Shown: positions 301 to 63,488 of the stretch, piece by piece
How positions within the stretch are numbered: position 1 is the stretch's first letter
Layout of the letters: each line of letters starts with the position of its first letter
Assembly (NCBI GenBank): GCA_964017235.1
Contig: OZ024933.1
Location: 11,783,962 to 11,847,961, forward strand
DNA: 64,000 bases
Source: Sabellastarte sp. h YS-2021
Taxonomy: Eukaryota; Annelida; Polychaeta; Sabellida; Sabellidae
Direction: 5' to 3'
Notes under the pieces: generated by a model
Database searches by the model: none
What the model was told of the DNA's origin: nothing
Seen by the model: only the letters and a program-made list of their open reading frames with translations
Made by a program: the position numbers and the translations under genes

Positions 301-3300
301 TAGTAAGTAAGTAAGAAACACTTATAAAGTGCCGAATTGATGTAAACATCCTCTAAGGTGCTGATGTGCAAAAGAGGAATAGTCCAGTTCCAAAACAAGG
401 TATGTTACCATATTAGCGTCCAGTAGGAGAGATAGGCTATGTCAGAGGATAAGCTAATCTGAAAAGATATATTTTCAACCGTTTTCTGAAACCAGAAATG
501 CTTTCTATGGTTCTAATGGCTTGAGGAAGCTTGATCCACTCCGTGGGAGCCCCTACTATGAAGCTGCACAGCACTGAGCGTTTATTTGGTTTAGATGAGG
601 AATTTGATTGGCGATTGCCCCGTGTAAGATCACTCCGCCTAATTAGAGTGGAAAGATACAGCGGTTGGCTGAAATGTATTGCTTTATAAGTAAGAAGATT
701 GTATTTCAACAATATACGGTAATGAATGGGAAGCCAGTGTAGTTTGTGCAGGAAGGGTGTGACATGACAATATTTATTTAGCTTGTATACCGTACGACAT
801 AAGGCATTTTGAACTCTCTGTAGTCTGCTAGTATATGCCTTTTTGTGTTGTAAAGCAGTGGGTTACAGTAATCCATGCGACTGTTAACCAAGGCATTTGC
901 CACCCTTACAGCTGTTTCATGATTTAAGTAACTGTGGATGCTTCGCAGTTCCTGGAGATGGTGTGGCCACGGTGGCAGAGTGGTAACACTCTCACCTCCC
1001 ACCTCTGAGGCCCGGGGTTCGATCCCCATCACTGCCTCAAGTGGGAAAGCTGGTAGTTGCTTGCCGTTGGTCGGCAGTTTACAGTACACAACCCTAGCGA
1101 ACTCTATGTACTGCTTTCCTCTGCTCTTCCAACTACCCGTCGTGATATGACCTGTACAGTGTTGAAAGCGACGTAAAACCCAAATAAATCAATCCTGGAG
1201 ATGGTAGTAACTTATGCGACAGAGATTAGCCACGTGTCTTTGCATTGAATTTTCTGCATCCAGGAAGACACCAAGGTTTTTGACCAATTCAGCTTTTTCC
1301 ATGCTGTTGCCAAGCAAACTCACTGGGAAAGATGACTTCAGGGAGCTTCTAATTTGATAATCACCAATCACTATGAAATTTAAGTTTATTATTTTCCATC
1401 CAAGCCTGGACCACCTGAAGGCAATTTGTCAGTTCAGTGATACTAGAATCGAAGTTCCTAGAGTCAAGTTCCAAATAAAGTTGTGTGTCATCTGCATATA
1501 AGTGATGGGTCACGTTGAATTTAGATATGACTGAACTAAGTGGGGTTGTATGTAGGGTGAAAAGGAGTGGCCCCAGGACTAAGCCCTGGGAACCCCATAA
1601 GGGAGTTGAAAAGCATCTGAAAGATGTCTATCTATTTTGAGCACTACCCCATCAATGCCATACCAGTGCTGAAGGCAGTTGAATAGGATTGAGTGGTCTA
1701 TTGTATCAAAGACTGCAGATAAGTCTAAAAGGACTAATCCAACAGCTGCACCCTTGTCCATTGAGGTGGCAATGTCATTTTGTATTTTTAACAATGCTGT
1801 TTCAGTTGAGTGAAAAATTCTATATGCTGACTGATTTTTGTTGGATATACCCTTGTGCGCTCATTTATCTGCCTAGCCATAGCTTTCTCTATGAGTTTGG
1901 AGATGTAGCTGAGGTTTGACACTGGTTGATAATTCTTGAGAATATTTCTGTCAAGACCAGCTTTTTTAACAAGGGTGTAACATGTGCAGTCTTAAACAGG
2001 ATGGGAAATTGCCCTTCTGTAGGGAGTAGTTCACAGTATTTGCAATAGGAGTCAAGAGCACACTGAAACAATCAAGGACCAATGAGGTTGGGATTGGATC
2101 CAAGTCACATGATTTGTTTGGTGTGGACTTTATTTTAATGATTTTAAGGACTTCTTTCTCTGAGATGGTCCGGAAAGAAACAAACTTATTTTTGTAGGAA
2201 CTTGTGACAGGGGGATAGACATCAGTAGACAATAATCCAGATCTTAGTTTAGCAATTTTGTCTGTGAAATACCTGCCAAAAGTGTTGATTAAACTGTTGA
2301 TGGTAGTACGATCTGGAAGCACAATTTTTGGTGATCTTTGGAGGACTTTCTTTATGGAATTCCACAAGGCCTTGTGGTTATCCTCATTTTCCCTAACCAT
2401 ATTGCTATATTATTTGGTTTTTGCACATTCCAAGAGGCGGTTGAAATGGTTCACTGCAGCTCTATGCCTACTACGATTTTTGGTAGAGTTGTCCCTTTGC
2501 CATTACCTCTCGAGTTTGCGCTTACGTCTCTTTACTGGCAAAATCTCGTTGTTTATGAACCCTTTGTTGACATGTTTTGGAGTTTTACGTTCATGAATTC
2601 GGTTCTGTTTATCTTGCCAAGTTTTCTGATTTTTAAGCGTTTTACTCTGCAGGAATTTTTGAATCGGAATGTTATGGTGAAAAAAACAGGCAGGTTGTCT
2701 CATATGCCATCCTTTACATAATGGTGAACTGAGGAATTTAGGAATTTACTAGAGCAGAGTACATCAAGGATATGTCCAGGTGATGACACATGTTGAATAA
2801 AATCAAAATCCAACAGAACTGTGTTGAAATTATCTGTCCAACAGTTTTGACTGTCTAGCTGGATATTGACATCTCTCTGGATATTGACATCTCTCAGAAT
2901 AATGTTTACATGTGGTGACAAAGCAGCAGCTTCCATGAAACAGTTGAATTCCTCAATAAATTTGCTGATGCTCCGAGGTCAGTAGATGACATGTACCAGG
3001 AGCTGGCTTGACTGGCACTCTGACAGCTTGACGGTAGTATGTTCAAAAGGGTCCCACTGATCAGTTTGACAAAGCGCGCTATCAAAGCCATTCCTGGCAA
3101 CTGCTCATCTTTTCTTGTTCCTGTGTGGGACATGGTGAAGCTGGAAACCTGCAGGGGTTATCTCATCTATTATGCCCTGTGTGTCCGACCGCCTTAGTCA
3201 GGTCTCAGTGACACCAACGATGTAAAGGTCATTTGATGAAACATCACCAAAGGCCGATGTTTTGTTACGCAATGACCGGGCGTTCAGCAGACAGGCTTTG

Positions 3301-6336: not shown

Positions 6337-6388
6337 ATGAATAAAGTCCATCTGATTCTGCCGATGATACTTCTGCTGCTCCACATTA
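6337..6388 (+). CDS. Ig gene copy 1, exon 1 (signal peptide)
   Basis: Encodes MNKVHLILPMILLLLHI, a short charged N-end and a hydrophobic core, and ends in phase 1 at the donor GTGAGT. An acceptor-like TTTATTGTAG at 6292-6301, also present before copy 2, suggests this exon begins near 6302 with 5' UTR and that a further 5' UTR exon lies upstream. Confidence 0.8.
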
Positions 6389-9300
6389 GTGAGTATCCCT
6401 GTACTGATTAAGATCTAGTTCAAGGGTCAAAGTTGGGGTTTTACATCCTGTTCAACAGCCAAGGTCATAATGGAACATGTCCTCATTTTTGTTACTGGTA
6501 GGAGTCGAATCCACACGGCTGTAACAGCCTGAAATTAACTAACCTACTAAGCCAAATATGTAAAAATAACATGTGTAAAAATGGAACTTATTTGTTACTA
6601 ATGAACTGTTCTGAAAATAAAATACTTTAGACCTATTTGAGTTATTTTTAAGCTTAATTGATCAAATGAGTTAGAGGGCATGATGCTATATAGTGGATAA
6701 CATACTGTTTTTCCAACCTCTCAGGTCATGTGTTCAAAATCAGACCCAAAGCAAAGTTGATGGTATTTTGCTGGTGCACAATTTTTATTGAGCAGAGTCT
6801 CACAAACACAACATGACATATCATAACCTATATGTTTCTTAGGAGCAGTATTAAATCTAAACCAACCAATAACATATGTGTCAAAGTCTGAAACCATTGC
6901 CAGCAATAGTACATTTGACCAAATCTGTATGGAGAGTTATTTTAATGGACCTAACCTGGTTCTAGGTTGGCATTGGTTGTTATATAATGTAAAACATATT
7001 AGAAGCCTTTCAGACCCAATTATACTGTAATTAACCCAATTGATGTGTCATAATTGTGTTGGTGCTTTGCGGATATGAGATTTAATGAATATGCTGTACA
7101 TTATTATTTTACAGGGGCTGTCTCTTCACTGGAAATAAATGGTTCATACACAACATCTTTCCAGTGTGCAGATGGTGGCTATGCTTTGATTAGAGGAGAC
7201 AACTTGACCTTGGAATATAACTATGGACACAATCAATCAGAAGTAAGTATGACATTATCAACAATTATCTCCCAAATTATATTTAGTTATCCAGTGCTTG
7301 TTCATGTTCTTCTACAACATTAAATTACACCTGAGAGTTAAAAAATATCTTTCACTATTGGCCACTTTGTAATTTTGACCATATGTGGAAGTATTTTACC
7401 ACATTTCAAAAAAAAAACCCCTTTTTACATTTATTTCAAGTAAAATGATCAGAAAAACTGGTAAAATACACACGAGGAATATAGAAATGAAAAGTAATGA
7501 TGTTAAACAACGTCTTAAAATTACAAATTAAGTAAGAGGTGTAAATTAAATAGGTTAATAGCTTGGTAAGTGTCCAGTATTGGAAAATAATGAACTGTTG
7601 ACTCCCTCCTTTGGGAACTTGTAAACAGTCCATTATTTTCCAATATTTGACACTTACTTGGCCTTTAACCTATACTTAAGCAGCACTAGATGACACAACA
7701 GTTTATTCAAAGATTCAAAACTTTATCATAATATTCAAGCCTACAGTATTCCAACAAACCACACATAAAATAGAGACAATCGCTGTCAACAAATAATCAC
7801 ATGCCTTCCTTGTAGTAATTGGTATAATATATTCCATCAAACTGCTGCATGACAATAAACACACGGTAAAGCATTAGTCAGTCGAGATTAAGTGCTATGA
7901 AAGTTCAACAGAATTAGAATTAGATTATATTCATTTGGATTATATTCAAAAATACTATTTCAGTCACAACTGTGATATGCATCGTCGGAATTATGTCTAA
8001 AGTGTTTTACATAGCGTTTTTTCACTAATAGCGAAACAAGCGAGAAATCACAATATTAAAGGAAGCTTCTTAATGTTTTTTCACTTACTTCATTCAGGGC
8101 ACTTGTAGTTTATATTTTTCAAATGTATCATCAATTTTTAATTTGGCCAACTTTTCTCAAGAGTTTAGGTAAATTACACAGTAGACCAATGTTGTACTCT
8201 AGGCCTCTTCATCCGACCGCCATTCTAGAACTTCTTTTAATTTGTTGATTTATATCTATTTGTCTGATATGTGTGCTTCATTACTTTTCAATATAAATTA
8301 TGTTTTGCATTTCATATAGCTGAAAAGTTTCCAACTCTATCAAAAATCCGAAGGTTACCGTATGTTTGATTATGAAAATGGCAATGAGAACATAAAAGAC
8401 CCGTACAAGAGGCTGAACTCACATGACTGGATAGAAACAGGCATCAAGTTCAAAATTGCAGATATCAATAAGAATGACACAGGCAAATATCAATGTGAAG
8501 TAGACACAGGACAAGAATATAACCACGCAGTCCTTGAAGTCAAAGAAATATTTGGTTAGTCATTTATTTTGTTTGTTTTGAGAATATAATATATTTTTGG
8601 TAAGTTTGTTTGATAGAAACACTATGAGAGTCTATAAATGACAAATTGGAAGAATGTTCCCATTATATTTTCCAGCTTAGAGATAATATAGGCTCATACC
8701 TTACACCAAAATATTTAGAAATACATTGGACATAATTTTTCATACTATAAGTATACAGGTAAATTACAATAATTTTCTAGTCGTAATATAAAACAACAAG
8801 TTCAGGCAAGGCATCATACTTAAGTTTAACTGACAATGTGTAACATTAATAAAGACGTGGGAGTGTATTGCTCTAAAAATAGAAATCAAGTATATTTATT
8901 TAATGTGAATTATATACCATCCATTAACTTTAGTTTTCATGTGTTATTTACTTTCCCTAAATGTAACTTGTTGCTGTAAGTAGACAAATATTTATGCAAA
9001 TGAAAGCAGAAAAGAAGTATGTAAGAGAAGTTATAATCTGTATATTTTAGGCAGGGAACCTGTATTTGTTATTTTAATAATTTTTAAGGGCTGTCAGGGT
9101 ATTGTTTTCACCCATGGTGAAGGTTTTGGCGAGTTTTTGGTTGGACACACGAGCGGTTGGCTGGAAAAAAGTTATCCATTCAGTAGCTCAGAAATCGTAA
9201 GGTGTAGGAAGGTGATATTTGGTAGGGACATTGGTGAGGGGATGTAGGTGTGCAACGTCATGGTGTGACCTTGATGTGGCCTTTTCACAGTGATCTTGAG

Positions 9301-12300
9301 TTTGAAAATGTTGTCTGAAACTGTAAGGTGTAGGAAGTTGATTCTTGTTATGAAAATTGGTTAGGGACATTGGTTAGGGGGTGTAGGTGTGCATCATGAT
9401 GTGACCTTCAACTTTAGCTGTTACAAAGTGTGTTCACTTGCCATATTTGAGATATGTTTCTCTAATGACAAAGTTATATGGATTGCTGTAACTAATTGTT
9501 ATATGTTCTTTTACATAATTGTGTTATTTTCATTGATAGTTATTCTCCAGTTAATAACTTTATAGCTTCATAATTTTTTACTTTATTTGATTAATACTGT
9601 CATTTTGCTATTAAATTGCTTGTTTTAATACTTCATCTACAATTTCTCTAGTGAAACATTTATATAACTAACACTGCTCTGAAAGTATCCCAATTTTTTT
9701 CTTTGTACTGTTTCACTTCTTCTATATATCTCATGATGATGAAAACTATTTCCCCAGGCTGTGGGGCATGGTCATTTGTAATGCTATTTTAACAACTTGC
9801 ATTGTTTCTCATGTTCCAAATATTTCAATGAATAACATAATCACAACTTATTTTAAAGTCTGAAAAGAGTCAAGCTTGACATTTTACTAAAATATTTATT
9901 GGTAATTGGTTTTATTCTGAATCAATGTCAGACTCCCGAAACTCATCACAATCAAGGTCAGAATTACTCTCTGACTCAAACAGCAATATCCTGGCTTCAT
10001 CTCTCAAGTTCTCCACCCTATCTACAGTCCCCAAGGCATCTGCCATGTTATCTGATAGCTCCAAACTGATAGCTCCAAAATCCAAACTGATGCCACAACA
10101 TCTGAAGGACTTACTTATGACCTCTTCTGACATTTTGGACCAGGCACGAGAAACCCAATTTACAACATTCTGTCTGGATGCTTGCTTGAGGTTGCCCTGT
10201 AGGGTCCTGATGTCAACCCAACCTACACTTTCTCTTTTTGCATTTCAATATCAGAACTGGTATTCTATTAAACATCTCCTGTTTGGCAAATAGGATGCCA
10301 CCACCTCAAAAGGAAAAAAAAAGTAATGCAAAAATTTATAAATAAAATCTCTATTGTTTTGAAGTATTATTTATTTTATTGATTTATGTAGTGTTTTATG
10401 CATTCTTACTTATCGGTTATGAAGTGATGGGTAGTTGGAAGGGTGGAGGAAACCAGTACATACAGTTGGGGGGACCTGTACTATAAACTGTTGACTAATG
10501 GTAAACAACTACCAGCTGAGGTCAGGCCGGGAGTCAAGCTCTGATCCTAGAGGTGGGTGGTGATGAAGTTTCAAAAGACACAAAGTAACAGAAATGTGTC
10601 AAATTTAAATATTTTGAGAACAGATTTCACTTGAAATAAAAATGACATCTGTATCTTTGCCCTGCAGTTGCTCCCTCGTGTCTGCCATAGTGTGGATTCT
10701 GGCCTTTTCCAGCACCACTAGCCTTCTTACAAGAGTCCATTCATCCATCCATTTTAGATGCTGTCAATCTTACATTGTTTGCTGTTTGCAAGACTCTTTT
10801 TCGGATCACACCATTCTTCTCCTTTAGGCATATAAATTCTAGCTTTTTGTTTCATTTGATGACATATCAAACCTACACATAGTCTGATCCATGTTCCATG
10901 ACATTAAGTTGTTTCAGTATAATTGATAATAACTGATAACCTTGACACTTACTGTGGCATGTTTATCCTGCATGGCTGCCCCGCTCTGTTCTTGCTTTTG
11001 TTAACTAATTCTGCCTATTCTGCAACAGTGTCTAGCATACTGGAGGACTTGGGCCATTACAGGCTTGTTGTAAAGGGGTCTCAGAGAAGTGTTGGTTCAC
11101 TATATTCTTCTAGTGACCGAGATAAGGGTGGGTAAATTTACTGTCAGAGAACATATATGTCCACTTGTTACACTTGTTTTGTTAAATGTTGTATAGTGTG
11201 TGTTTGGCTAAATTATTCAGAAAGAAAAATAAGTGAGATTTTGATCTAAAGTGCAGAGTTCACCCAGAAAAAGCCAAATGCTGTATTGTTTTTACAATAC
11301 CAGTTAAATGGACCACATGAAGGTCAAGTTCAAAGCACTCTCAGTTATCTTAAGGACAATGGTATTAAGTTATGTCTAAGTTTTTGATCATACAATTATC
11401 ATTTAATAAAAAGATCCACAGAGTTGGCATTTTCAACAAGTGAATTCTGCAGTCATTGTAAATTTGGTTTCTAATTCAGAATTGTGAAAAAGAGTTCAGT
11501 ATTTATTTTTCTGTTACTTATTTATGCTCTACTGTTGTTTGTAACACCAGTGTCAATTCTAAATTTGGCCAGTCCTAACTTGCCTGGTTATTATTGAAGC
11601 CTAATAGAGAAGAAGCACAGGAAGCATGATGTCTCCAATGTAAATCAATGTACTGCATGTAACCACAGCCAAGATAAATTCATGTAATTTTTGTTGTTGC
11701 TTTTTACTAACAGAGACAGTGAATTTAAATGGGGTGTCTCTAACGTAAATGATAGTTTACTGAATATGACCAAATGTATGATGCATGTGATTTGTGTAGT
11801 TGTTTTGTGTGCTAACACGGACAGTGCATCAAGTGGGGGTGTTTCCGGTGTAAAAGTCCATTTACTCGACATGACCATGACATGAAATTTATTCAGTCAC
11901 TGTGCCCCTGCTCTTTGGAACTCTTTCCCCTTCCATATAAGAAACAGCCCCTACCTTACATCTTTCAGGAAACACCTCAAACCCACCTGTTCAACTCCAG
12001 TTTCCCAACTTAGTCCCCTTCCCTTTTGGTCACACCCATAACTCCGGATCACCGACCTTGACCACCCCTCGACTGTCCTTATGGTTAATGTGTTTTGTTA
12101 ACTAACATGCTGAGTTCCCCTTTATGGAGAAGATATTGTGCATGCAAAGTGGTATATTAGATTAGATTAGACCAAAAACAAACAGGGACAGTGAACAAAG
12201 TGGGGGTGTTTCCAGTTTAGAAGTCCATTTGCATGATATGACCAAAGGTGAGATGATGCATGTAACGGTGTAGTTGCTTTGTGCCTACAAAAGACATGAG

Positions 12301-15300
12301 TAAATTTGCATGAATCAGTAAATTGGTCTTATCTTCATTGAATTTAGCTTACCAGGAAAACGTAAAGCATGCATGTATCTTCATAAACTTTTTTGAAGAT
12401 AGGATGTCACCAAATATGCAATGATAATATATTTGAATTGAAGTATTGTTTTCTTAAAAACATAAGACTATGCTTAGCTTTAGACTTATTATTATTGTAT
12501 ATCTAATTATTGTAAAAACTTTCACTACATGGTGTATAATTATAATTTCAGTTTTTACATGAACCAAAGCTGAGTTCATGTATGATCCTGTTATATAGCT
12601 ATATCTCACATTTATTAATCAGATCCACCAGAAGATGTGACAATCACCATTCCAAGTGATGTGGAAGAAGTATCAATTCTGCCCAAAGGATTCCAGGAAT
12701 ATACAATTAACGCATCAGCACAGTCAAATTCTTCCATTAATTGCAGTGGTGTTAGGATTACATGGTCATTCACAAAAGGGAAACCCCAGTCCTGTCAAGA
12801 TGGTAAAGAAATGTTATAATCTCAAGCCATTTAAAGCTGCCGCTTTTTTTTGCTGTTTATTTCAGTTTCTCCTGCCATTAATGATATTGTCACATGACAC
12901 TTTATTACATCTTACTAATAACTCTTTCTCGCCTCAGAGATATTAAAGGTAATTTCATTTTGCATTATATATTGCTGAACAAGACCCTGCATATGTCCAT
13001 TTTAAACCAAAAGGAATCGTTTAGATTGGAACCGACAAGAGTTTAGCCTTATAAAATAGCAGTCTATTGAATGCCAAGTAATTCGTTGGATGTTGTACTA
13101 TCAATTTTTGTTTTTATATGGAGTTTTAAAGTTATATTTACATGTAATTAGCAGCTCATGGGTACAGGTCCTCATGCTGTCACAATTTAATCAGATAAAT
13201 ATTTTCAATCACAGTTTCACAAGAAAATGGTCTAAAATTTTTGAAAGTTACATACAAACTTGAAATTCCAATAACATATATTTTCTGTGTTTAGTACAAT
13301 TTTGAATGAATAAAAAAAAAGGATTTGTACATTAAGCTTAAAACAGGTTTGTACCAATAATAGACATCTTTGTGTGCGTAATTCCATTGTACATAGTATT
13401 AATATTCAATATTTGAATGGCAGTTGCAACCTAGTTTCTGCAAGAAGGAATTTTTCCAATAATGTTACATGAAGCAAAAAAAAAATGAATAAAGAATACA
13501 AGAAGCATGGTGTTTACGTACTGAGACACATTTTAACTGTTGACAATTGTCAGCTGGTATGATAAGTGAAGGATTAAAAGTTATGATGTTGTGGACTCTC
13601 AGCAGACTATAGTGTTTCAAGTTATGGGCTTTTAATCATCGGTTAATATTTGTCCGTGTTTTGCATGTCAACTCCTAAAATACCAACATTATGACATTCA
13701 CTTTCACAATAACAGGTATTGTATTTTACCTAATTCGGTTCTGCAAAATCTTGTCAATATATATTAATGGTACACTACAATAAACAATTGTAACATTACC
13801 AGTGTAAAGTAATGTAATTTCAGATGAGAAAGATGCTACTTTCTGTCCATTCACATTAAAGGAGTCAGAAATCACTGCAGGGGAATGTCTAAAGCTGAAA
13901 GTTTATGCAGAACAGTATGGTGTTCGAAGTGAGACCAAAACTTACGCTGTCTGTTATAGCAGTAAGTAAAAGTCTGTTGGAAACGTATTTTTAAAGATTT
14001 GCCCCAGGTCGTCAGTAATCATAAATTAGTATGTTTGAGAACTTATTACAGGCCGCCACCTCAGTATAAGCATTTCTCCTACCAGTAGCAATGCTTGAAG
14101 ACTTGTTCCAGTGTAACCCTGGTTGTTGAACAGGACATAAATCAGCAATGTTGACTTTGTGACATGTCTTTTGTGTACTCTCGACCACCTCCCATGATAA
14201 CTACAAGCATAGACTTGGAATATGTAAGCTGATAGAAAATGCTGTAAGGTGCAGCTTTCAATGTTAAAGATCATATTTGAGTGATATTGTAGCACATACG
14301 AAACTAAGAGTAAACAGTACTTAAATTTAACAAATAGCAAAATCTGCTAAAAATGAGAAATACTGAACTGCAGGTGATAGCATATCATTGTTGGACCTGA
14401 TTCAGGTGACATTTCTCTTGCTTTCAGGTTCTCGAAACACAAGGATAACATAGCCTAATCATTATCAGTTATGGAAGAGTTTCTCCTCTTCTCTCATTTA
14501 CAAGAATGTCAGGTTTCTTAATTCTGTTTTACAATTTCAAAAGTTAGGGTTGTGCATCTTGCTCAACAACAATGGTCATTTTAGGAGATGTTCCTGAGTT
14601 TCTGCCACTTATGGCAGACAAAAGTATAGTAAATAGTTACTTTTTACAATCAAGTAGCTTAAGTAATAACTCATATATGTTGTATACTGCATTACTTTAC
14701 CTGTCTGGTGATACTTTTATCAAACCTGATATTTATACAGTTCAGGTATGTATGTACAATGCAGGGGCGGATCAAGCCTTTAAGTAATGTGGGGGTTCAC
14801 ATCAGAGTAAGGTGGGGGTTCACATCAGACATTCCATAACTAAGGGGGACGGTGGCATGCCTCCCCGGGAAAAAATTTTTTTTGGTAAAAATATAGTGCC
14901 TTTCCTAAATTTAACACCACTCTCAAGAAATAATTTTGTACTTTGGGTTGAACCCCTTTACAATATTTTTCAAGTGGAGGTTAACGCCCTGACCGCTCAT
15001 CTGCTAATGCATTGGTAATACTTATTATTTGCATGGAGAAGCTACTGTCTACCAGATCGGTTTGGTCACCTTCATACATTTGTTTCATATATTTTACGTG
15101 AGGCCCTTATATTTAGCAAATAATAAGGAACTGATCTTGCTTAAATTCAGAATTCTAAAGATTTAAGGTAATCCTTTATGTGCTAACGGATGGTCCATGT
15201 ACACATAATTATTTTAATACCTAGATCCACATGGAGGGAAATTTCTTGTCAGTTGCTTTCTCAAGGTGTCGTTAACAGATACGAAACATATTTAACTCAG

Positions 15301-18225
15301 GAAAGACTGTAGATTTCTTTTCCTCTTTATAACTTATCCAAAAGTTTTGTAATTAAGTATTGCTAATGGAAAAATAATATGTTATACTTCTTGTTTTGAA
15401 TAAACCTTATTATAGATAAAATGACTAAAAACAATTTTATTTTTTCAGGTCCCAACCATCATTCCTGTCCAGGTAAGACACCTGTGTCTAGAGATATACT
15501 TAAACCTTTGCCTATTACCCAATTTGCAGTATTCTGTTCAACGGATGCATGTGGTGTATACATTAGATTGTGCATGTGTTTCTGGAGACGTGTTGCGAAA
15601 ATGAAGTGATATTTTGTCATTACCACTCTCCAGCAGAAAGTTAAACATCTAGGCTCCTTAACATGTCAATGTCACCTACAAGTGTGACTATAGCCAATAT
15701 GTACAATTATATGCATATATTTGGAGATATAAGTTGTAAAAAATAGAGTCCTGGTGTCATATGGGGAGAGTATCTTATTTGTTTTAGATTTTATTAAAAA
15801 ATTCATTTAAATCAGCAATAAGATTTTTAACGTGGGAGACCCATGGAACAGGGATAAGACATGGTGGAGTATTTCCAAGAAGCTGAAGGTAGGCAAGATG
15901 AAAAAGGCATGCTGTTGGGTGACTACTGACAGACATTTAACATTGACCCTGAACGTAAGTGTATCAACTGCCAATATAGTATGAACAAGCTGACCCAGAA
16001 CTGGTTTGCAATACTAGAGCCAAGCTGTTTTGGACATTTTGTTGAGCCAAGTTGTCCTTCTGTTGGGATAGCTTGGTGTGTCTGTTGATTTGAATGTTCA
16101 TCTTATCTCATACAAGCTTTGGGGAACTGGACAAAGCGGCCCTAAACAGAAGGCCAACAAAAATACCCTGTTCATTACATATATCATTAGTATTTAGAAC
16201 ATGCAGGCACTGAAGTTTGACAATGAAATAATGTATGGCCAAATTGTCAAAATTAGAATGGTACACTGTGACTTCCTTTATCAGTGTACATTAACAACAT
16301 TTCTGTTTAAACAGTTTATAATCCACACTTCTTGAAATTTAGCCTCTCCAAACTGCTGTTTTGTGTATTGTGTATACTTTAAAACACCCAAGACTGTGAA
16401 TATTCATACATAGTCTATTGTAAATATCCTGCTTATGACACAAAGATATGAAATTTAAAAAAATAAAATAAAATTTCACCATCAAATTTTTAACTGTTCC
16501 AGTAATAATGTTTCAAGGGAAACTGACTGATTGACATATGACAAATTAAAAAGTAAGATGGTGAATAACCTGACTTTCATTGTCACTCAAACTTTAGTAT
16601 GTGTAGGGAAAGCCTTTTGTAACCCATGAAGTATCCCTCAAAATGAACCTGATATTACGAAGTACAAAATACAAAATTAATAGAATTAATTCTCCCCATT
16701 GATGAACACAGTCACAAAATTTCCTTTCATATAGCATTTTTTATATTTCAGTTTTTGGATCCCAAGCCATTGTTGCAGTGACAACAACAGGTGTGACTGC
16801 AGCTGTACTTATAGTAATCTTCATAGTCATAGTCATTGGTGTATATGTGGTTTGGAAAAGGAGAGGTACGATTTGTCAAGTAATGCTAAACTTTCAAGTG
16901 CACTGTTCATTAAAAATTAGTGTGGTTTTACACTTTGCTAAAGATAACCTATGAACTTTTAACTAGTAATAATATATTAAGCATGCTAAGCCCTTTCTTT
17001 TGATGCTGGACTGTTGAATACCAGACTGTTGAGTTCTTGGCTATCACATGTTGGTCCAACAGAGCACCAACATTAAACTGGTGTCATGAAACCGACTGAT
17101 ACATTTAGAATATTTACATAATGTTTTCATCTCATCAGGAGTGGAAATAGTCACAAAAAAAAATAAAAATAAAATGGCCAGGAATTAGATCTGTTTATAT
17201 CTTAGGCATATTCATTAGTTATTGTTATTCAGTAAAATATATTACTGAACGGTTGAACATTGTTCACAGTTACAATATTCTGTTTCTTGAGTGAGCATAG
17301 GTTTAAAATGTAATCTGAAAACACAAACAAGTAAATATGTAAGAGTATAGGCACAAGCGTTGCTATACATGGAACTTTCTGTTGGCCAATTTTAGTGAGA
17401 TGTGAGGGCGGTCGGACAGGTGTTCTTCTGTTTGGGTGGACATTGGCAAAAGGTTTGAATGGGCTTAGAAACTGTAAGGTGTACGATATTTGGTAGGGAC
17501 ATTGCTTGGGGGTATAGGTGTGCAATGTGACTTAGATTTGATCTTTGACCTTGACCATTTAAATCTTGTTTGTACCATATCTCAGAAACTATAAGGTGTA
17601 GGAAGATGATACTTGGTAGGGACACTGGTTGTGGGTTGAATGTGAGCATCTTCATAGTATGACCTTAATTTGATTTTTGACCTTGCCAAAGTGACCTTGA
17701 CCTTTAAAATTTATTTAGGCTATATCTCAGAAACGACAAGGTGTAGGAAGTTGATATTTGGTAGGGACATTGGTTAGGGGGTGTAGGTGCACAGTGTTGC
17801 GGTATTACCTTGGTTTAAACTTTTACCTTGCAGTAATGACATTGACCTTAGATACTAGGACATTAGGTAGTTGTTTAGGTGTGGAACATCATGTCATACT
17901 GTTTTTTTGTAAAAGTCTCCCGATCTTTGTACTGTGTCACTTCTTCCATATCTCATAGTGTTATAAACTATTTCCTGGGGCTATGGGGTACGCTCATCCC
18001 TGATGCTATTTTTTACTTTACTGATTATAACTGATAAAGTTAAAGTGATAAACACAAGGCATCTACATTTCTATACCATTGTGTTTTTGTTGAAAAGGCC
18101 ACAGCAAAGAAAATGGAACAGTATGGCACACACAAGCCAATGAGGATGTTGCAAGTGGAACTGAACCACACTGTGAACTGGTAATGGTGCTTGGTAACCT
18201 TTCTTCCAGACTAAAATCCATTTGA
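6337..18225 (+). CDS. Ig-superfamily transmembrane protein, gene copy 1 (eight exons traced)
   Basis: Exons: 6337-6388, 7115-7242, 8320-8554, 12623-12802, 13824-13961, 15449-15472, 16752-16865, 18098-18180 (or to a stop at 18225). All use AG/GT sites, and phases run 1,0,1,1,1,1,1,0 with no break, giving 318 residues. Layout: signal peptide 1-19; V-like Ig domain about 24-136 (Cys35 in FQCADG, Cys119 in DTGKYQC); a second domain 139-244 starting DPPEDV with CLKLKVYAEQYGVRSE like FN3 F-G strands and five cysteines; hinge SPNHHSCP; transmembrane helix about 260-286 followed by WKRR; cytoplasmic 287-318. Many N-x-S/T sites (NGS, NLT, NQS, NDT, NAS, NSS, NCS) fit an extracellular glycoprotein. Likely a type I receptor or adhesion protein, possibly immune. 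The ligand and named family are unknown. The start was chosen because the first Met gives a clean signal peptide and is conserved in copy 2. Confidence 0.8.
6432..6556 (-). mobile_element. Old tRNA-headed SINE in intron 1 of copy 1
   Basis: On the minus strand the right part reads TGGCTTAGTAGG (box A like) and GGATTCGACTCC (box B like); the left part resembles the reverse of a molluscan SINE tail (GGGTTTTACATCCTGTTCAA). The same insertion sits at the same place in intron 1 of copy 2 (about 50938-51054), so it predates the gene duplication. Confidence 0.6.
7115..7242 (+). CDS. Ig gene copy 1, exon 2 (first half of V-like domain)
   Basis: 128 nt between the acceptor TATTTTACAG and the donor GTAAGT, phase 1 in and 0 out. 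Encodes AVSSLEINGSYTTSFQCADG then GYALIRGDNLTLEYNYGHNQ, with the first Ig cysteine and three N-glycosylation sites. Identical length to exon 2 of copy 2. The Ig domain is split by a phase-0 intron just after the C/C' region. The usual core Trp position is held by Tyr (EYNYG). Confidence 0.85.
7551..7672. repeat. Foldback (inverted-repeat) element in intron 2
   Basis: The left arm TAGGTTAATAGCTTGGTAAG continuing TGTCCAGTATTGGAAAATAA is mirrored by TTATTTTCCAATATTTGACA continuing CTTACTTGGCCTTTAACCTA, with a loop of about 20 bases (CTCCCTCCTTTGGGAAC). It looks like a small MITE able to form a hairpin. It is not seen in intron 2 of copy 2. Confidence 0.75.
8320..8554 (+). CDS. Ig gene copy 1, exon 3 (second half of V-like domain)
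   Basis: 235 nt, phase 0 in and 1 out. Encodes LKSFQLYQKSEGYRMFDYEN ... GIKFKIADINKNDTGKYQCE ... AVLEVKEIF. The DxGxYxC motif with the second Ig cysteine and the final AVLEV strand are typical of V-set domains. Acceptor CATATAG, donor GTTAGT. Confidence 0.85.
9092..9800. repeat. Degenerate intronic repeat family C, copy 1
   Basis: Contains repeated modules such as GTAAGGTGTAGGAAG...TTTGGTAGGGACATTGG and ends with TTTCCCCAGGCTGTGGGGCA. It shares modules and the right end with 17390-18012 in intron 7 of the same gene. No coding capacity. Confidence 0.6.
9912..10250 (-). pseudogene. C-terminal remnant of a pogo/Tigger-like (DDE_1) transposase
   Basis: The minus-strand frame reads KQASRQNVVNWVSRAW then SKMSEEVISKSFRCCGISL, matching the W..AW..I..E.I.KSF..CGIS pattern found after the DDE_1 domain of Tigger/jerky/CENP-B-like transposases. 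A very acidic C-terminus (FESESNSDLDCDEFRESDID) and a stop follow. No HTH or catalytic DDE region is visible upstream, so only the tail survives. It lies antisense in intron 3 of Ig copy 1. Confidence 0.6.
10372..10563 (-). mobile_element. Old SINE, family A
   Basis: A diverged reverse-strand copy: GGGTAGTTGGAAGGGTGGAG, AAACCAGTACATACAGTT, CTGTACTATAAACTGTTGAC and AACAACTACCAGCT are recognisable. The tRNA head at the right is eroded. No clear target-site duplication. Confidence 0.75.
10564..11600. other. Intron 3 sequence, nothing recognised
   Basis: Short open frames on both strands show no known motif, splice-phase fit or repeat match within the window. Confidence 0.35.
11600..12295. repeat. 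Minisatellite of about 105 bp, interrupted by a LINE end
   Basis: About three units share GACAGTGAA...GGGGTGT...GTCCATTTAC and GATGCATGTGATTTGTGTAG. Two units lie left and one right of a LINE 3' end (11890-12172). Confidence 0.6.
11890..12172 (+). mobile_element. 5'-truncated CR1/L2-like LINE 3' end
   Basis: Matches in reverse the LINE fragment at 51080-51700: CTTTCAGGAAACACCTC, CCAGTTTCCCAAC, TTGGTCACACCCA and CCGGATCACC are shared. The 3' end is GAGTTCCCC...GATATTG then TTAGATTAGATTAGA, a simple-repeat tail. It sits inside the minisatellite. Confidence 0.75.
12623..12802 (+). CDS. Ig gene copy 1, exon 4 (second ectodomain, first part)
   Basis: 180 nt, phase 1 in and 1 out (acceptor TTAATCAG, donor GTAAAG). 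Encodes DPPEDVTITIPSDVEEVSIL, then PKGFQEYTINASAQSNSSIN and CSGVRITWSFTKGKPQSCQD. A proline-rich entry followed by a W-containing strand suggests an FN3 or C2-Ig-like sandwich; a strict family call is not possible by eye. Confidence 0.75.
13824..13961 (+). CDS. Ig gene copy 1, exon 5 (second ectodomain, second part)
   Basis: 138 nt, phase 1 in and 1 out (acceptor TAATTTCAG, donor GTAAGT). Encodes EKDATFCPFTLKESEITAGE, then CLKLKVYAEQYGVRSETKTY and AVCYS. The KVYAEQYGVRSE piece resembles the F-G region of FN3 domains. Three cysteines here plus two in exon 4 leave at least one unpaired or an extra disulfide. Confidence 0.75.
14762..15010. mobile_element. hAT-like MITE (CAGGGGCGGATC type), copy 1
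   Basis: Starts CAGGGGCGGATCAAGC and shares GTGGGGGTTCACATCAGA, AAATATAGTGC, AACACCACTCTCAAGAAATA and TACTTTGGGTTGAA with the copy at 47758-48086. The terminal CAGGGGCGGATC resembles hAT termini. No transposase frame. Confidence 0.65.
15449..15472 (+). CDS. Ig gene copy 1, exon 6 (24-nt hinge microexon)
   Basis: A 24-nt exon between a strong acceptor (ATTTTTTCAG) and donor (GTAAGA), phase 1 on both sides. It adds SPNHHSCP between the second domain and the membrane exon. It is symmetric, so skipping would keep the frame. A microexon called by eye is less certain than the larger ones. Confidence 0.6.
15473..16751. other. Intron 6, nothing recognised
   Basis: AT-rich intron with no coding frame, SINE or MITE recognised. 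Confidence 0.4.
16752..16865 (+). CDS. Ig gene copy 1, exon 7 (transmembrane segment)
   Basis: 114 nt, phase 1 on both sides (acceptor TATTTCAG, donor GTACGA). Encodes VFGSQAIVAVTTTGVTAAVL followed by IVIFIVIVIGVYVVWKRR: about 27 hydrophobic residues then a basic stop-transfer WKRR. This makes the product a type I membrane protein. Confidence 0.85.
17390..18012. repeat. Degenerate intronic repeat family C, copy 2
   Basis: Three tandem modules of about 120-130 bp, each with AAACT(A/G)TAAGGTGTAGGAAG-like and TTTGGTAGGGACATTGG, ending with TTTCCTGGGGCTATGGGGTA. It matches 9092-9800. Confidence 0.65.
18098..18225 (+). CDS. Ig gene copy 1, exon 8 (cytoplasmic; possible last exon)
   Basis: Acceptor TTGAAAAG, phase 1 in. 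Encodes GHSKENGTVWHTQANEDVAS then GTEPHCEL. There are two readings. A donor GTAATG at 18181 ends the exon in phase 0 and would continue to a distal tail. Without it, the frame runs 14 more codons (VMVLGNLSSRLKSI) to TGA at 18223-18225, with a polyadenylation-type AATAAA at 18400-18405. The first 28 residues are supported by phase; the choice of end is open. Confidence 0.6.
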
Positions 18226-18542
18226 TCACTCGAAAAAGTAAAATGGGTGAAACCTTTAATAAGGATTTGCAATTAATATCTTTGTACACTGAGATACACA
18301 TTTTTTCTTTGTTATCTGAAGAACCAGTGTTTTACTTAGATTTTCCTAGAAACCTTCATGTTTAATTGTTTCCACCTTTATTGGAAACAGTATTGAAAGA
18401 ATAAAGGGTCAAGTTATTGGTGTTTTAAGTTGGCATTTAGCCAACGGGTAAACTTCACTAACCACTCAGAAAAGTAAAACCAATGGAATTTCCAGTCAGT
18501 ATGTATAATGAAATAATATGTATTGTTATTATATCCATACAG

Positions 18543-41548: not shown

Positions 41549-42690
41549 AAGGCATGTTTCAAGCCTCTCTTACGTTCCATTGTACATGCATGTACGTCCT
41601 GAATACAGAGAAAAATCGGCTGATTTGCAAGGAACACTTAAGCTACACGTGCAATTTTATATAACAGAATTTCAAGGTTGCAGGGGCACCCCCCACACAT
41701 AATCGAAATTGGCATGCATATTATTCTCTGCATGCTTGCTGGCTAGGCTATAAACACATTCATATCTCAAGGAAAATTTATAAGAGGCTTGGGCACGTGT
41801 GTTTCCTTTGCTTTTGTTGCCGTCCGTCATGACTGCATGTGTATTTCGTAAGGTTGGTGGTTACTTGCCGACGCCTGGTGGTTTACAGTGCAGTATACAC
41901 TGGTTTCCTCCACCTATAAACTAGCCATCGTAAATATCACCCTGGCTGTTGAACGTGACATAAAACAATAAATAACTCTATGCATCCGTGTTAACCTACT
42001 GTGGGGCCTGTATCTAGTCATAGTCTGTTCTTTGATGTTCAATTACTGACACACTTGTTGCAAAAAAAATACCTTGTTTGCATGTGCAAAACTCTGATTC
42101 CCCACTGCCCGGCTATGCTCATATTTTTCAACAATATTTGCAGCACACTTACGTGTGTATACACATATGATGGGATGTAAAGTCTCTCTTACATCCCATC
42201 ATACGTGCATGTACGTCCTGGTTACAGAGAAAAATCGGCTGATTTGCACGGGACACTTAAGGTACACTTGCAATTTTATAACAGAATTATGAGGTTGCAG
42301 ACACCTCTCAATGAAAATTGGCATGCACATTATCCTCTGCGTGCTCTCAGCATGGCTACAATTGCATCCGTATCTCAAGGGTAACTTATGGGAGACTTAG
42401 GCACGTGCATTCTCCTTACTAGTGTTGTAGGTTTCCCCCATTTACTTACATTGTTTGCATGTGCTGTAAGATACACTCACGTGTACCTTGCATGTATATA
42501 AGACCACTGTTCAACCTGTAGCCAGTAGCAGTCTGCTCTTTGGTCTTCAAGTTGGGACACGTGTGCTGGCAGAATACACATAGTTTGCACGTGAAAATCT
42601 CTACTACCCCACTACCACGCTACGTTCATATTTTTCAACAATATTTGCAGCACACTTATGTGCCTAAACACATACGATAGGATGTATGAG
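41549..42690. repeat. Segmental tandem duplication, unit about 600 bp
   Basis: 41549-41815 aligns with 42186-42420 (GCATGTACGTCCTG, CAGAGAAAAATCGGCTGATT, AATTGGCATGCA, CACGTG...TTTCC/ATTCTCC). 42005-42180 aligns with 42500-42680 (CATATTTTTCAACAATATTT then GCAGCACACTTA). A SINE fragment lies in the first unit. Confidence 0.75.
41848..41975 (+). mobile_element. SINE 3' fragment, family A-like, diverged
   Basis: Recognisable GGTGGTTACTTGCCGAC, TGGTTTACAGTGCAG, ACACTGGTTTCCTCC, and the tail GTTGAACGTGACATAAAACA then ATAAATAA. Head missing. Confidence 0.65.
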
Positions 42691-43008
42691 AAGCTTAAGA
42701 TAAGTTTTACATGTGTATACATGTACGATGTGATGTGAGAGAAGCTTAAGAGAAGTTTTACATGTGTATACATGTACAATGTGATGTAAGAGAAGCTTAA
42801 GAGAAGTTTTACATGTGTATACATATACGATGTGATGTAAGAGAAGCTTAAGAGAAGTTTTACATGTGTATACATGTACGATGTGATGTAAGAGAAGCTT
42901 AAGAGAAGTTTTACATGTGTATACATGTACGATGTGATGTAAGAGAAGCTTAAGAGAAGTTTTACATGCCTTGTGTATACATGTACGATGTGATGTAAGA
43001 GCAGCTTT
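42680..43008. repeat. 51-bp minisatellite
   Basis: About six units of 51 bp: GATGTGATGTAAGAGAAGCT, TAAGAGAAGTTTTACATGTG, TATACATGTAC. The period is a multiple of three, which keeps both long minus-strand frames (156 and 127 codons) open as 17-residue repeats; these are not taken as genes. The last unit carries a small insertion (CCTT). Confidence 0.92.
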
Positions 43009-50831: not shown

Positions 50832-50880
50832 ATGAATAATAAGAATAATATGTATTGGATAATTCTGCTGCTTCATATTG
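50832..50880 (+). CDS. Ig gene copy 2, exon 1 (signal peptide)
   Basis: 49 nt ending in phase 1 at GTGAGT, with the same ILLLHI end and the same donor context (GTGAGTATCC) as copy 1. An acceptor-like ATTGTAG at 50791-50797 precedes it. Confidence 0.75.
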
Positions 50881-53800
50881 GTGAGTATCCTTGCAGTGGT
50901 ATGTAGTTTAGAGGTTAAAGGTCAAAGTGGGAATTTAACATCCAATTCAACAGCTATGGTCAAATTGGGACAGGTCTTCAGCATTGTCACTAGTCGGAGC
51001 CTGTGATTACATGACAAACTTTCTAACCACTCAGCCACCTGGGCCCTTGAGATCTAGGAAATCATTATCATAAGGAAAAGTCAAGGGGCATTCAAGGTCA
51101 GTAATCCGGATTTGTGGGTGTGACCAAGAGGGAAGGAAACTGCGTTGGGAAACTGGAATTAAAGAGGTGTTTCCTGAAAGATGCAACAGAGGGGCTGTTT
51201 CTTACTTGGAAGGGGAAGGAGTTCCAAGGAACCGGTGCATAGTGATTGAAAGAATTGGAGAAATGTTTGACTGATTTGTAAACCTTATGGTCGAAAGTGG
51301 GGTTGCGAAGGAACTTGAGTTTAGGGGTACTTTGCCTTGTATTCCTGGACGAGGTATAGGGGTGAATTAATTTTCTCAGCTAAACTGGTTGGCCCTGGTT
51401 GAGAATTTTGTATGTAATGAGACCAATTTTGAATTGTATCTTATATTTCATAGAGAGCCAATGGGGTTTCTTTTTAGTTGAGGGGTAATGTGGGAGTATT
51501 TAGAGGACCGGGTGACAACCCTACAGAGTGAATTTTGGACTGCAATCTTCTTAACTCAAAATCTGTGAGTGATAAGAATAAGGAATTGCAGTAGTCCAGT
51601 CTGCTGCTCTCCAAAGCATTTGCCAAAGGAACTGATGTGTTAAGGTTTAGAAGGGGACGGATTCTATAGAGGTCTCTTGCATGAACTCTGGTGGACTTCA
51701 TAGCATTCCTACATGTTTATTTACTACCAGGCAATGATAATACTTTTAATGAACATCAACTGTTATTTCTGGTGTAAATATAACATGTGTAAAATGGAGC
51801 TTATTTGTTATTAATGAAGACTTGTGATATTTGTAAACTTCACCAATAATTATTATTGCCAGTCAATGTAAACATTTTAGCTGTTCTGAAAATACATGTT
51901 TGACTTATACACAAGATAAGCTGAATACTTCTTAGATGAAATTAAGCTTGCTTACAAAGTAACAGTTTTTCTATTATGGGAAGTATTGTACATCAAATAT
52001 TCAAATGAGTTACAGAACATGATGATATTGTGGATAACAAATTATGTTCACCAACCTCTTAGATCATGTGATCAAATACAGTTGCTAACTTGACATTTCA
52101 TAGTTGATGGTATCTTGCTGGATCACATGCTTTTTTCTGTAGTGTCTCAAAAACAAAACATACCATAACCTATATCTTCCTTAGAAGCAGTAGTAAACCG
52201 AAAATAAAGTCAAAAGAAAAAAAATCAAAGTCTTAAAACATTGTCTGCAATAGTACATTTAAACATATATGTAGAGACCGTTCTTTAAATGGACCTAGCC
52301 TGTTACCAGGCTGGTATTGGTTGTTATACTATGAACAATATTAGATGCCTTTCAGAACTGGTTATATTGGAAATAACCCATAGATGTGTCATAATTGTGT
52401 TTGTGCTTTACCAATATGGGATTGGAATATGTTGCGATATTTTTTAAATTACTATTTTACAGAAGCTGTTTCTTTAATCCAGATTACGGCTTCCTATACA
52501 ACACCTTTTAAGTGTGTAGATGGCAGCTATGCTTTGATTAATGGAACAAACTTGACCATAGAATATAACTATGGACATAATTTTTCAGAGGTAAGAATAA
52601 TACTGTCTACAATTATCTCACCAAATTACATTGATTTACTTGATATGTTAATTCAGGAGCATTAATTAGCATTATAAAGACCGGAAGTGAACAGTGAATG
52701 AAATTCCGTTTGTGCACATAGAACCAGCTAGGCATAAAACATGTGATAACTGCCCCCTGAAAAACAGAATTGCTCGATTGTATGTTGGTAGTAAAATCGT
52801 TTGCTTTTACAAGAGCAATCATGCATTCAAAACAATATGGTGGTGTAATTCTTTCCTGATTTAGGGTGCCCATTTAATTGCATGACTATTTTATCTTAAA
52901 TATTCTCTAAAATATGTGTGCATTGAATAAAGTTAAAGTTAAGTTAAGGTTCTTAACTCATTGAACACATTTAGTTAAACTTTAAATTTTATCTGTCAGG
53001 CAAACTTATCCATCTCAGATTTTCTTCACTGAGTTGTCTGTGATTGCTACCACTTTGCACGTTCCCCAACAAATGATTGTGCACTCTGGTTTGGGTTATG
53101 TTATGACTTAGAATCTGCAATTATGAACACAATATACAAGAAATAACATGACCCAATGTACAAAATGATGTCATGAAGAACCTTAAGGTTTACAGCATTC
53201 CATGATACAAGATATACTAACATATACCAATCATTGACAAGAAGTAGCCCCAAGTCTACCTTCCGGTAATGTGTAAAATATAATCCACTAAAATGCTGCA
53301 AGACAATAAAGACTTGGTGAAGAAGGAATCCAAAGAGATAAAGTGCTATGAAAGTTTGATCAAAGTTAGAATTATATTGCACTTGTTTGGAGTTTATTTT
53401 AAAGTAGTATTTCAGTTGCAGCTGAATGATATACATAATTGGAAATATTTCTACAGTGATTTAGATAGTGTTATTTTAATAAACACCATTTCAAAATGAC
53501 AGAGAAATCACAATATTCAAAGTTTTTTTACTTTCTTCATTCAAGACACCTAGAGTTATTTCTTTGCCAGAGATATGTGCTTATCTAGCGTGCTAGTGGT
53601 CAGGTTGGCCTTGTACAAGTCAAGAAATTACTAATGATAACATGGGTTAATAAATAAACAATATTTATTTACAAATATACAAGTTTTACCAACAAAGTTG
53701 GGGCTGAATTGGCACATTTAAAGTTGATAAGTTTACATGTTTGATAACAGTTTAATATTCACACTAAATAGTTACTTGATATCAGATAAAACAATAATAA

Positions 53801-62800: not shown

Positions 62801-63488
62801 CTTCTGTTTTCCCCAGAAGTTGAGGAGACAACATCCTGTTCACAAAGCAATATTAACATGTGACAGTACAAGTACACAGGTACACAATAAAATACAGGTA
62901 GGTAACCCATTTTATAATAATCCAGCATAAATGATCTGAAATACAGCATCATTTATACTTCATTATCTTATCTAATCTAATGTGGACTTTTATGGCGCTT
63001 AATCTCCATCATTGATGGACTCTAAGGCGCATCTAACCATAAGCAAGGCCATTAGCGTTAATCAAGGGACAATAGCCAGGTCATACCAAGGAGACACAGA
63101 TGTGACGGGGGAGGCTATGGTGGGTAGGCTTTTGCAAACAGGTATGTTTTAACCTGTATTATCGCCAACTACACAAATATAATATGCATAAATTTCGTCA
63201 TCGGCCGTGGAGACTACACTTACTTGCTTTTTAATATGTACTATATTTTGCATTTCACATAGCTGAAGAGCTTCCAACTCTATGATAAGGTCACGCGTCA
63301 AGCGATGTTTGACTATGAACGTGGTAAAGGCAAATATTTTAAGGACAAGAGGTGTACATCATATGAGTGGACAGAAACAGGCATCAAGCTCACAATTGCA
63401 CATATTGATAAGGGCAAATATGAAGGTTCTGTTAGCAAGGGAGGAAGAGAACATAATGATACAGTCCTTGAACTGAATGAAATCTTTG
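50832..63488 (+). CDS. Ig-superfamily protein, gene copy 2 (exons 1-3; continues past the window)
   Basis: Exons 50832-50880, 52463-52590, 63263-63488, phases 1,0,1 as in copy 1. Signal peptide [16 protein letters not shown]; then [20 protein letters not shown] (Cys34) and [20 protein letters not shown]; then [20 protein letters not shown] to VLELNEIF. The frame is open and all sites are AG/GT. Unlike copy 1, the second half has DKGKYEGSV where copy 1 has NDTGKYQCEV, so the second Ig cysteine is lost and exon 3 is nine bases shorter, in frame; a new Cys90 (KRCTS) appears. Intron 1 carries a LINE end and intron 2 a 9.6-kb Gypsy fossil. It may be a functional diverged paralog or an early pseudogene. 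Later exons lie beyond 64000. Confidence 0.7.
50938..51054 (-). mobile_element. Old tRNA-headed SINE in intron 1 of copy 2
   Basis: The minus strand reads GGCCCAGGTGGCTGAGTGGT at the head (box A). It is orthologous in position to 6432-6556 in copy 1. Confidence 0.55.
51080..51710 (-). mobile_element. 5'-truncated CR1/L2-like LINE
   Basis: The minus strand encodes [33 protein letters not shown] and LRRLQSKI (RT C-terminus), then the C-terminal tail ending near [14 protein letters not shown] and [10 protein letters not shown]. Frames are interrupted. It is absent from intron 1 of copy 1, so it inserted after the gene duplication. Same family as 11890-12172. Confidence 0.82.
52463..52590 (+). 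CDS. Ig gene copy 2, exon 2
   Basis: 128 nt (acceptor ACTATTTTACAG, donor GTAAGA), the same length and phases as copy 1 exon 2. Keeps Cys34, the NGT/NLT/NFS glycosylation sites and EYNYGHN. Confidence 0.82.
52591..53579. other. Left part of intron 2 of copy 2
   Basis: Homologous to 7243-8280 of copy 1 in its right half (GAGAAATCACAATATT; TTTACTTTCTTCATTCA). A piece at 52673 (TTATAAAGACCGGAAGTG) matches the end of the composite foldback MITE at 46660-46690. Confidence 0.55.
53584..54875 (-). repeat. Left (3') LTR of the Gypsy fossil
   Basis: About 1.29 kb, matched along its length by the right LTR. Contains six spaced copies of a AGGTTTTACCCTGG-like word. Confidence 0.88.
61937..62107 (+). 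mobile_element. SINE, family A, 5'-truncated, in the right LTR
   Basis: Begins within the body (TACGGCCTCAAGTGGGAAAG), lacking the tRNA head, and ends CCCCAAATAAACAAATAAA. A 15-base target-site duplication CACCCAAGACTGTCC lies at 61922-61936 and 62108-62122; the left LTR gives the empty site. Confidence 0.92.
62378..62627. mobile_element. MITE in the right LTR
   Basis: Left end GGCGGTATTCACAAACATTC, right end TCTTAGTGAATACCACCCC: inverted ends with an AATCTTAGTCCTATCTTA / TAAGACTAAGATAGGAAT pair. Flanked by a 3-4 base AGG/CAGG duplication; the uninterrupted left LTR shows the target (GATCAGGTTTTACC). Confidence 0.85.
62968..63157 (-). mobile_element. LINE 3' end in the right LTR
   Basis: The minus strand ends GGAGATTAAGCGCCATAAAA then a TTAGAT-type tail, like 35325-35400. 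ATTATC is duplicated at 62962-62967 and 63158-63163; the left LTR carries the empty site (TTATTATCACCAACTAC). Confidence 0.8.
63263..63488 (+). CDS. Ig gene copy 2, exon 3
   Basis: 226 nt, phase 0 in and 1 out (acceptor TTTCACATAG, donor GTATGT). Homologous to copy 1 exon 3 at both ends ([26 protein letters not shown]). The central DxGxYxC motif is replaced by DKGKYEGSV. Confidence 0.78.

What the first reader, a model, noticed from the sequence alone, without database searches (positions are those of the whole stretch)
6337..18225. Complete-looking Ig + FN3-like type I receptor gene assembled from raw sequence
Eight exons with canonical splice sites and unbroken phases give a signal peptide, V-like domain, second cysteine-rich domain, transmembrane helix and cytoplasmic part. 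The unusual points are an Ig domain split by a phase-0 intron, a Tyr in place of the core Trp, five cysteines in domain 2 and a 24-nt hinge microexon. It may belong to an expanded molluscan Ig receptor family.
Basis: partly seen in the sequence, partly recalled or inferred. Interest (0 to 1): 0.7.

Follow-up and report, generated by a model that had tools for sequence, protein, structure and literature searches.

The report
Member of a 70-gene receptor cluster
The gene model holds up: it is one of about seventy related cell-surface receptor genes, most of them spread over ten million bases of one scaffold, and the family looks like an undescribed recognition system with an unusual, possibly immunoglobulin-like head.

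Summary
The eight-exon gene is there, and paralogues support it. Splice sites and phases are canonical; exon 8 of four paralogues fixes its acceptor at 18098 and the protein at 332 aa, not 318. The 24-nt hinge micro-exon is conserved: eight copies found in five genes, all 24 nt, two each in three of them. Searches of the window's own genome by single exons give 73, 75 and 70 hits (exons 2, 3, 5); 63 of the 75 lie on one scaffold between 6.49 and 16.88 Mb, mostly + first, then mostly -. A second member begins in the window (50832) and runs off its end. dN/dS medians of 0.27-0.44 (exons 2-5) show coding constraint.

Domain 1 resembles a V-set weakly (Pfam E 0.0046, below cut-off), and 12 of 13 members tested match no Ig model. 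The B-strand Cys is Tyr; the F-strand Cys is present here but in only 3 of 32 members. Domain 2 (five invariant Cys) has no convincing match; FN3 is unproven. The tail has no tyrosine.

Best reading: an expanded family of type I recognition receptors, comparable in layout to Hydractinia Alr or the pearl-oyster Ig cluster. Ligand, expression, fold and species were not established.

The parts
6337..6388 (+). Exon 1: start codon and signal peptide (MNKVHLILPMILLLLHI), donor GTGAGT, phase 1
   Evidence: hydrophobic core from residue 6, ten-residue mean 3.21; aligned with exon 1 of gene 2
7115..7242 (+). Exon 2: first part of domain 1 (strands A-B by alignment); Cys35 (7165-7167), invariant in 13 of 13; Tyr52 (7216-7218) at the B-strand Cys position; ends in phase 0
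   Evidence: 73 genomic hits with a consensus query
8320..8554 (+). Exon 3: rest of domain 1 (strands C-G by alignment); DTGKYQC motif, Cys119 (8494-8496)
   Evidence: 75 genomic hits at 74 loci with a consensus query
12623..12802 (+). Exon 4: first half of domain 2 (Cys179, Cys196)
13824..13961 (+). Exon 5: second half of domain 2 (Cys206, Cys220, Cys242)
   Evidence: 70 genomic hits with a consensus query
15449..15472 (+). Exon 6: 24-nt hinge micro-exon, phase 1-1, encodes S-PNHHSCP-; length is a multiple of three, so skipping keeps the frame
16752..16865 (+). Exon 7: membrane-spanning helix (peak window from residue 267-268) and KRR
   Evidence: a TM exon in the corresponding place in L070, L071, L072, L073
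18098..18225 (+). Exon 8: cytoplasmic tail without tyrosine, stop TGA 18223-18225
18400..18405 (+). AATAAA, possible polyadenylation signal
   Evidence: read by eye; not tested
50832..50880 (+). Second family member: exon 1 ([16 protein letters not shown])
   Evidence: boundaries by eye
52463..52590 (+). Second family member: exon 2
63263..63488 (+). Second family member: exon 3 (exons 4, 5, hinge, TM and 8 lie beyond the window, in L073)

Best explanation
The finding is one gene, intact by sequence, of a large, mostly clustered family of single-pass cell-surface recognition receptors. SHOWN by sequence: signal peptide; a head domain (D1) split over two exons; a second domain (D2) with five Cys invariant in the members aligned; an 8-residue hinge exon found once or twice in other members and not found in some; a membrane helix; a short tail without tyrosine in this gene; about 70 loci, some 62 of them in a 10.4-Mb stretch in two mostly opposed blocks; purifying selection over exons 2-5. 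INFERRED: D1 is a V-type immunoglobulin-like fold without the usual B-F disulphide and binds a ligand; D2 is a cystine-rich stem; hinge copies set stalk length, possibly by alternative splicing; the receptor signals through a tyrosine-independent tail motif (ENG...T-x-PH-x-EL-V in its nearest relatives) or a partner chain. Duplication gives many related heads for non-self, microbe or self recognition.
For: Exon structure and phases. Genome hits by exon: exon 2 73, exon 3 75 (74 loci), exon 5 70, with every first-look candidate scored in each. Clustering, orientation, and 66 of 75 exon-3 hits with an exon 5 within 60 kb downstream on the same strand. Exon order 2-3-4-5-TM in L070, L071, L072 and 4-5-TM in L073; homology in pieces over the whole gene, introns included. 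Micro-exon conservation. dN/dS medians exon 2 0.31, exon 3 0.36, exon 4 0.44, exon 5 0.27. D1 alignment to PD-L1 (E 0.014) and FCAR (0.0027 summed over weak pieces); sub-threshold V-set match.
Against: No Ig model matches 12 of 13 D1 members at E<=1, where chance families reach 0.067. In the whole protein the best Pfam E (0.0044, DUF3149) is a TM-region match to an unrelated family, better than V-set at 0.022. A 13-member D1 profile finds no Ig chain in the PDB (one hit, a designed protein, E 0.11). Profile comparison with V domains: CD4 0.036, PD-L1 0.079, but CD2 0.51 and CD8a 0.68, no better than GFP 0.19, lysozyme 0.31 and FN3 0.67. The tail lacks ITIM/ITAM tyrosines. dN/dS shows no excess of amino-acid change in D1, which an arms race would favour. 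Expression, ligand and cell type untested.
Confidence: 0.6

Rival explanations
1. The family are adhesion or cell-identity molecules (neural wiring, gamete or tissue recognition) rather than immune receptors.
For: The same anatomy would serve; no tyrosine in the tail of this gene; purifying selection dominates.
Against: Cluster size, opposed blocks and a recent local duplication are more usual for immune or allorecognition loci (general knowledge, not tested).
Confidence: 0.25
2. D1 is not an immunoglobulin fold; the DTGKYQC string of this member is chance on a different beta domain.
For: Only 1 of 13 members matches Ig models; the family profile finds no Ig chain in the PDB; only 3 of 32 members have a Cys there; CD2 and CD8a compare no better than unrelated controls.
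Against: PD-L1 and FCAR alignments put G-x-N-L-T-L-x-Y and G-K-Y-Q-C where Ig domains have strands B and F; the exon-3 model is all beta, though at very low confidence.
Confidence: 0.25
3. Many or most loci are silent pseudogenes and the window gene is a relic.
For: 7 of 75 exon-3 hits have in-frame stops; 2 of 33 exon-3 sequences held lack a donor at the expected place; some exons lie tens of kb from the next.
Against: The window gene is open throughout with intact splice sites; dN/dS well under 1 in the four exons tested.
Confidence: 0.07

Closest known systems
Clustered Ig(+FN3)-TM genes of pearl oyster Pinctada fucata scaffold 9 (PMC9646362; passages and section 3.4 read)
   Same: Ig-domain genes, often with FN3 and a C-terminal TM, clustered in a megabase-scale region of a bivalve chromosome enriched in mobile-element domains
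   Different: Those were found by Pfam Ig (PF13927) and vary in Ig number; here one D1, below every Ig cut-off, and a D2 not recognised as FN3. Homology between the two was not testable
Hydractinia Alr allorecognition family (passages in PMC11067881, PMC11999971, PMC13119343; Huene et al. 2022 itself not held)
   Same: Single-pass receptors of a clustered family (at least 41 loci, pseudogenes among them), low sequence identity, IgSF membership confirmed by structure prediction
   Different: No sequence relation tested; allelic polymorphism and self-binding unknown here
CD2/PD-L1-type V domains
   Same: G-x-N-x-T-x-E and D-x-G-x-Y strings align with PD-L1; CD2 D1 also lacks the canonical disulphide (recalled)
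   Different: Not significant for the family; CD2 itself compared at chance level; no shared D2 or tail known
Oyster CgIgIT2 (passages in the review PMC11999971)
   Same: Molluscan IgSF transmembrane receptor with a role in immunity
   Different: Five Ig domains and a tyrosine motif; here two domains and no tail tyrosine

Membership tests
Immunoglobulin V-set (Pfam PF07686) | Score above the curated cut-off (26 bits) | tested here: not met
   15.4 bits whole protein, 17.6 bits D1 alone
Immunoglobulin V-set (Pfam PF07686) | B-strand Cys | tested here: not met
   Tyr52 at that column; no Cys there in 13 of 13 members, Tyr in 12
Immunoglobulin V-set (Pfam PF07686) | F-strand D-x-G-x-Y-x-C | tested here: met
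   DTGKYQC in this gene; the Cys is present in only 3 of 32 members
Immunoglobulin V-set (Pfam PF07686) | C-strand Trp | tested here: not met
   Gln68 at that column, Tyr67 beside it, in the PD-L1 alignment
Immunoglobulin V-set (Pfam PF07686) | Beta-sandwich fold | tested here: inconclusive
FN3 | Match to an FN3 model or FN3 structure | tested here: not met
   No FN3 model for any of 9 D2 members at E<=1; weak single-member hits to IL6Ra-bind (0.04) and IFNGR1_D2 (0.15), FN3-like by recall, and to Ig_NUP210_9th (0.073, 2 members); PDB profile search empty at E<=10
ITIM/ITAM immunoreceptors (KIR, LILR, CgIgIT2) | Tyrosine motif in the tail, or charged residue in the TM | tested here: not met
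   Tail of this gene has no Tyr; no charged residue in the TM core (read). A paralogue (L071) has one tail Tyr in the stretch seen
Hydractinia Alr | Clustered multigene family of single-pass receptors | tested here: met
Hydractinia Alr | Allelic polymorphism and control of allorecognition | not testable with these tools
   one genome, no reads

The most novel reading that the evidence does not exclude
A previously undescribed self/non-self recognition complex: about 70 germline receptor loci, most in one 10-Mb region, with a V-like head that dropped the canonical disulphide, a new cystine-rich stem domain, and a stalk whose length is set by repeatable 24-nt cassette exons.
Probability: 0.35. 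Interest if true: 0.75.

Novelty: new variant of a known kind. Interest (0 to 1): 0.56.

Why it matters
Pfam missed 12 of 13 head domains tested here as Ig, so annotation would tend to leave such genes uncharacterised (inference).

Tried and rejected
Exon 8 acceptor at 18105, 18110, 18122 or 18137: rejected because four paralogues have an AG at the place homologous to 18098 and the same frame. FN3 for D2: left unproven. Mosaic origin of exon 3: among the three nearest genes dS is 0.63-0.73 in exon 3 and 0.30-0.60 in exon 2, against 0.20-0.37 in exons 4 and 5, but a tree holding the three together in exon 3 is not rejected (p-AU 0.32), so I do not claim shuffling. Positive selection: exon 4 of this gene against its nearest relative has dN/dS 0.82 on 59 codons, below 1. 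Species: the genome has 1.786 Gb in 647 contigs, numbered to at least C21, the longest whose length I saw being 189 Mb; Mercenaria papers report 1.79 and 1.86 Gb with 19 chromosomes (passages in PMC7831173 and PMC8905726), but nothing here identifies the organism; a myosin search was dropped as uninformative. AlphaFold of exon 3 alone was uninformative, so no fold search was run. Literature: seven searches, of which I saw listings, showed no title or abstract start that describes this family; only open-licence PMC text is covered.

Full report
THE GENE. Window 6337-18225 holds eight exons with canonical AG/GT sites and compatible phases. The start of exon 8 I place at 18098, which gives 332 residues; none of nine AGs tested gave 318. 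Exon 8 of four paralogues (L071, L075, L076 which is the L073 gene, L077) has an AG at the homologous place and the same frame (HSKENGTVWHTQANEDVASGTEPHCELVMVLGNL here, NKENGAGQFTQGSVDDEAGTQPHSELVNVRSNL in L073/L075). Exon 8 is otherwise poorly conserved: a genome search finds only four places, three of them at E 0.003-0.14. An AATAAA follows at 18400 (by eye). The protein has a signal-peptide-like start, eight extracellular Cys, nine N-glycosylation sequons (seven extracellular), one strong membrane helix and a tail without tyrosine.

THE MICRO-EXON. The 24-nt exon is the only candidate on either strand of the window with YYYCAG, an open phase-1 frame of 12-63 nt and GTAAG. A model of five copies, which I had picked from an alignment, finds further ones with nhmmer. 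In all there are eight copies in five genes: one here, two each in L069, L073 and L070, one in L033; each is exactly 24 nt between TTTCAG and GTAAG. The weaker L070 copy scores only E 0.08 and is accepted on its splice sites and length. None was found in L071 and L072, whose introns from exon 5 to the TM exon are held whole. The hinge thus looks like a conserved, repeatable and dispensable cassette; whether two copies are spliced together or alternatively is unknown.

THE FAMILY. Protein searches of the window's own genome (1.786 Gb, 647 contigs), exon by exon with consensus queries at E<=0.01, give 73 hits for exon 2, 75 for exon 3 (two belong to one locus) and 70 for exon 5, with every first-look candidate scored; the tool calls such counts lower bounds. 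63 of 75 exon-3 hits lie on C7 between 6.49 and 16.88 Mb, median spacing 161 kb: 43 on + from 6.49 to 13.65 Mb and 20 on - from 12.64 to 16.88 Mb, the two overlapping from 12.6 to 13.7 Mb. The other 12 are on C2 (5), C19 (3), C5 (2), C6 and C14. Seven of 75 contain in-frame stops. 66 of 75 have an exon 5 on the same strand within 60 kb downstream, by nearest pairing, which can count one exon 5 twice. Of 33 distinct exon-3 sequences held, 31 have AG and GT at the expected place. A second member starts in the window: exon 1 50832-50880, exon 2 52463-52590, exon 3 63263-63488, with exons 4, 5, two hinge copies, TM and 8 beyond it in L073. This gene, gene 2 and the gene at C7:11.98 Mb align in pieces at about 68-91% over exons and introns, so whole gene units were duplicated.

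CONSTRAINT. Pairwise Nei-Gojobori ratios (pairs with dS under 1.5) have medians 0.31 (exon 2; 108 of 120 pairs), 0.36 (exon 3; 415 of 435), 0.44 (exon 4; 118 of 120) and 0.27 (exon 5; 75 of 78). Sequences with stops or without splice sites were left out, and pairs are not independent; all four medians are well below 1. Exon 3 is the least alike between this gene and its two nearest relatives (46-52% identity against 78-87% for exon 5), without excess amino-acid change.

THE DOMAINS. D1 spans exons 2-3, joined in phase 0. In this gene it scores E 0.0046 against V-set (17.6 bits, cut-off 26), and single-sequence search of solved structures gives FCAR 0.0027 (summed over pieces, none passing alone) and PD-L1 0.014, and with the 318-residue query JAM-1 0.009. 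Both alignments shown, PD-L1 and FCAR, put Tyr52 on the B-strand Cys. Against the idea: 12 of 13 family members match no Ig model at E<=1; an unrelated TM-region model scores better than V-set in the whole protein (DUF3149 0.0044); the family profile retrieves no Ig chain; profile comparison gives CD4 0.036 and PD-L1 0.079 but CD2 0.51 and CD8a 0.68, with controls GFP 0.19, lysozyme 0.31 and FN3 0.67. The F-strand Cys is kept in 3 of 32; Gly is the commonest residue there. Cys35 is invariant in 13 of 13. D2 has five Cys invariant in 9 of 9, so an odd Cys in each domain of most members suggests an inter-domain or inter-chain bond (inference). D2 matched no family better than E 0.04; the weak hits include Ig_NUP210_9th and two cytokine-receptor domains, FN3-like by recall, beside unrelated ones. 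AlphaFold of exon 3 alone, from two window peptides, gave pLDDT 46.5 with six strands, which decides nothing.

READING. The safest statement is a large, clustered, constrained family of type I receptors with a possible but unproven V-like head. Its build and layout resemble the Pinctada Ig-FN3-TM cluster (section 3.4 of PMC9646362) and the Alr complex of Hydractinia (passages). A recognition role is inference from family size and layout; the absence of tail tyrosines in this gene argues against ITIM/ITAM signalling. Species and expression remain open.

Noticed in passing
L083 (C7:9864250-9866750): A paralogue has exon 2 three times in a 1,118-bp tandem repeat (first two units 99.8% identical; the tandem-repeat tool, limited to period 500, lists nothing). 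Exon 2 is phase 1-0, so the copies could only be used one at a time; an assembly error is not excluded.
   Followed up: partly
C5:136.84 and 137.01 Mb: Two family copies with equal scores 172.7 kb apart (exon 3 and exon 5), both exon-3 hits with a stop: a recent segmental duplication or an assembly duplicate.
   Followed up: no
C7:13271649 and 13273679 (-): Two exon-2 hits with equal scores 2 kb apart before one exon-3 hit (13263680); perhaps a second exon-2 duplication.
   Followed up: no
window 55929-59947 (-): ORFs that look like a Gypsy-type retroelement (by eye, recalled motifs) inside the long intron 2 of the second receptor gene.
   Followed up: no
window 437-2409 (-) and 26392-29448 (+): Fragments that look like LINE and DIRS-type reverse transcriptases (by eye, recalled motifs).
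   Followed up: no
window about 6417-6500: Short interspersed repeat in intron 1, with 39 further matching places listed in the genome, a lower bound.
   Followed up: no
window 42612-43091 (-): Open tandem repeat translating to MYTHVKLLLSFSYITS-like units; probably a minisatellite.
   Followed up: no
C14:20123497-20142816 (+): A myosin-head exon (model positions about 126-173) repeated nine times at about 2.35-kb spacing, like an alternative-exon array.
   Followed up: no
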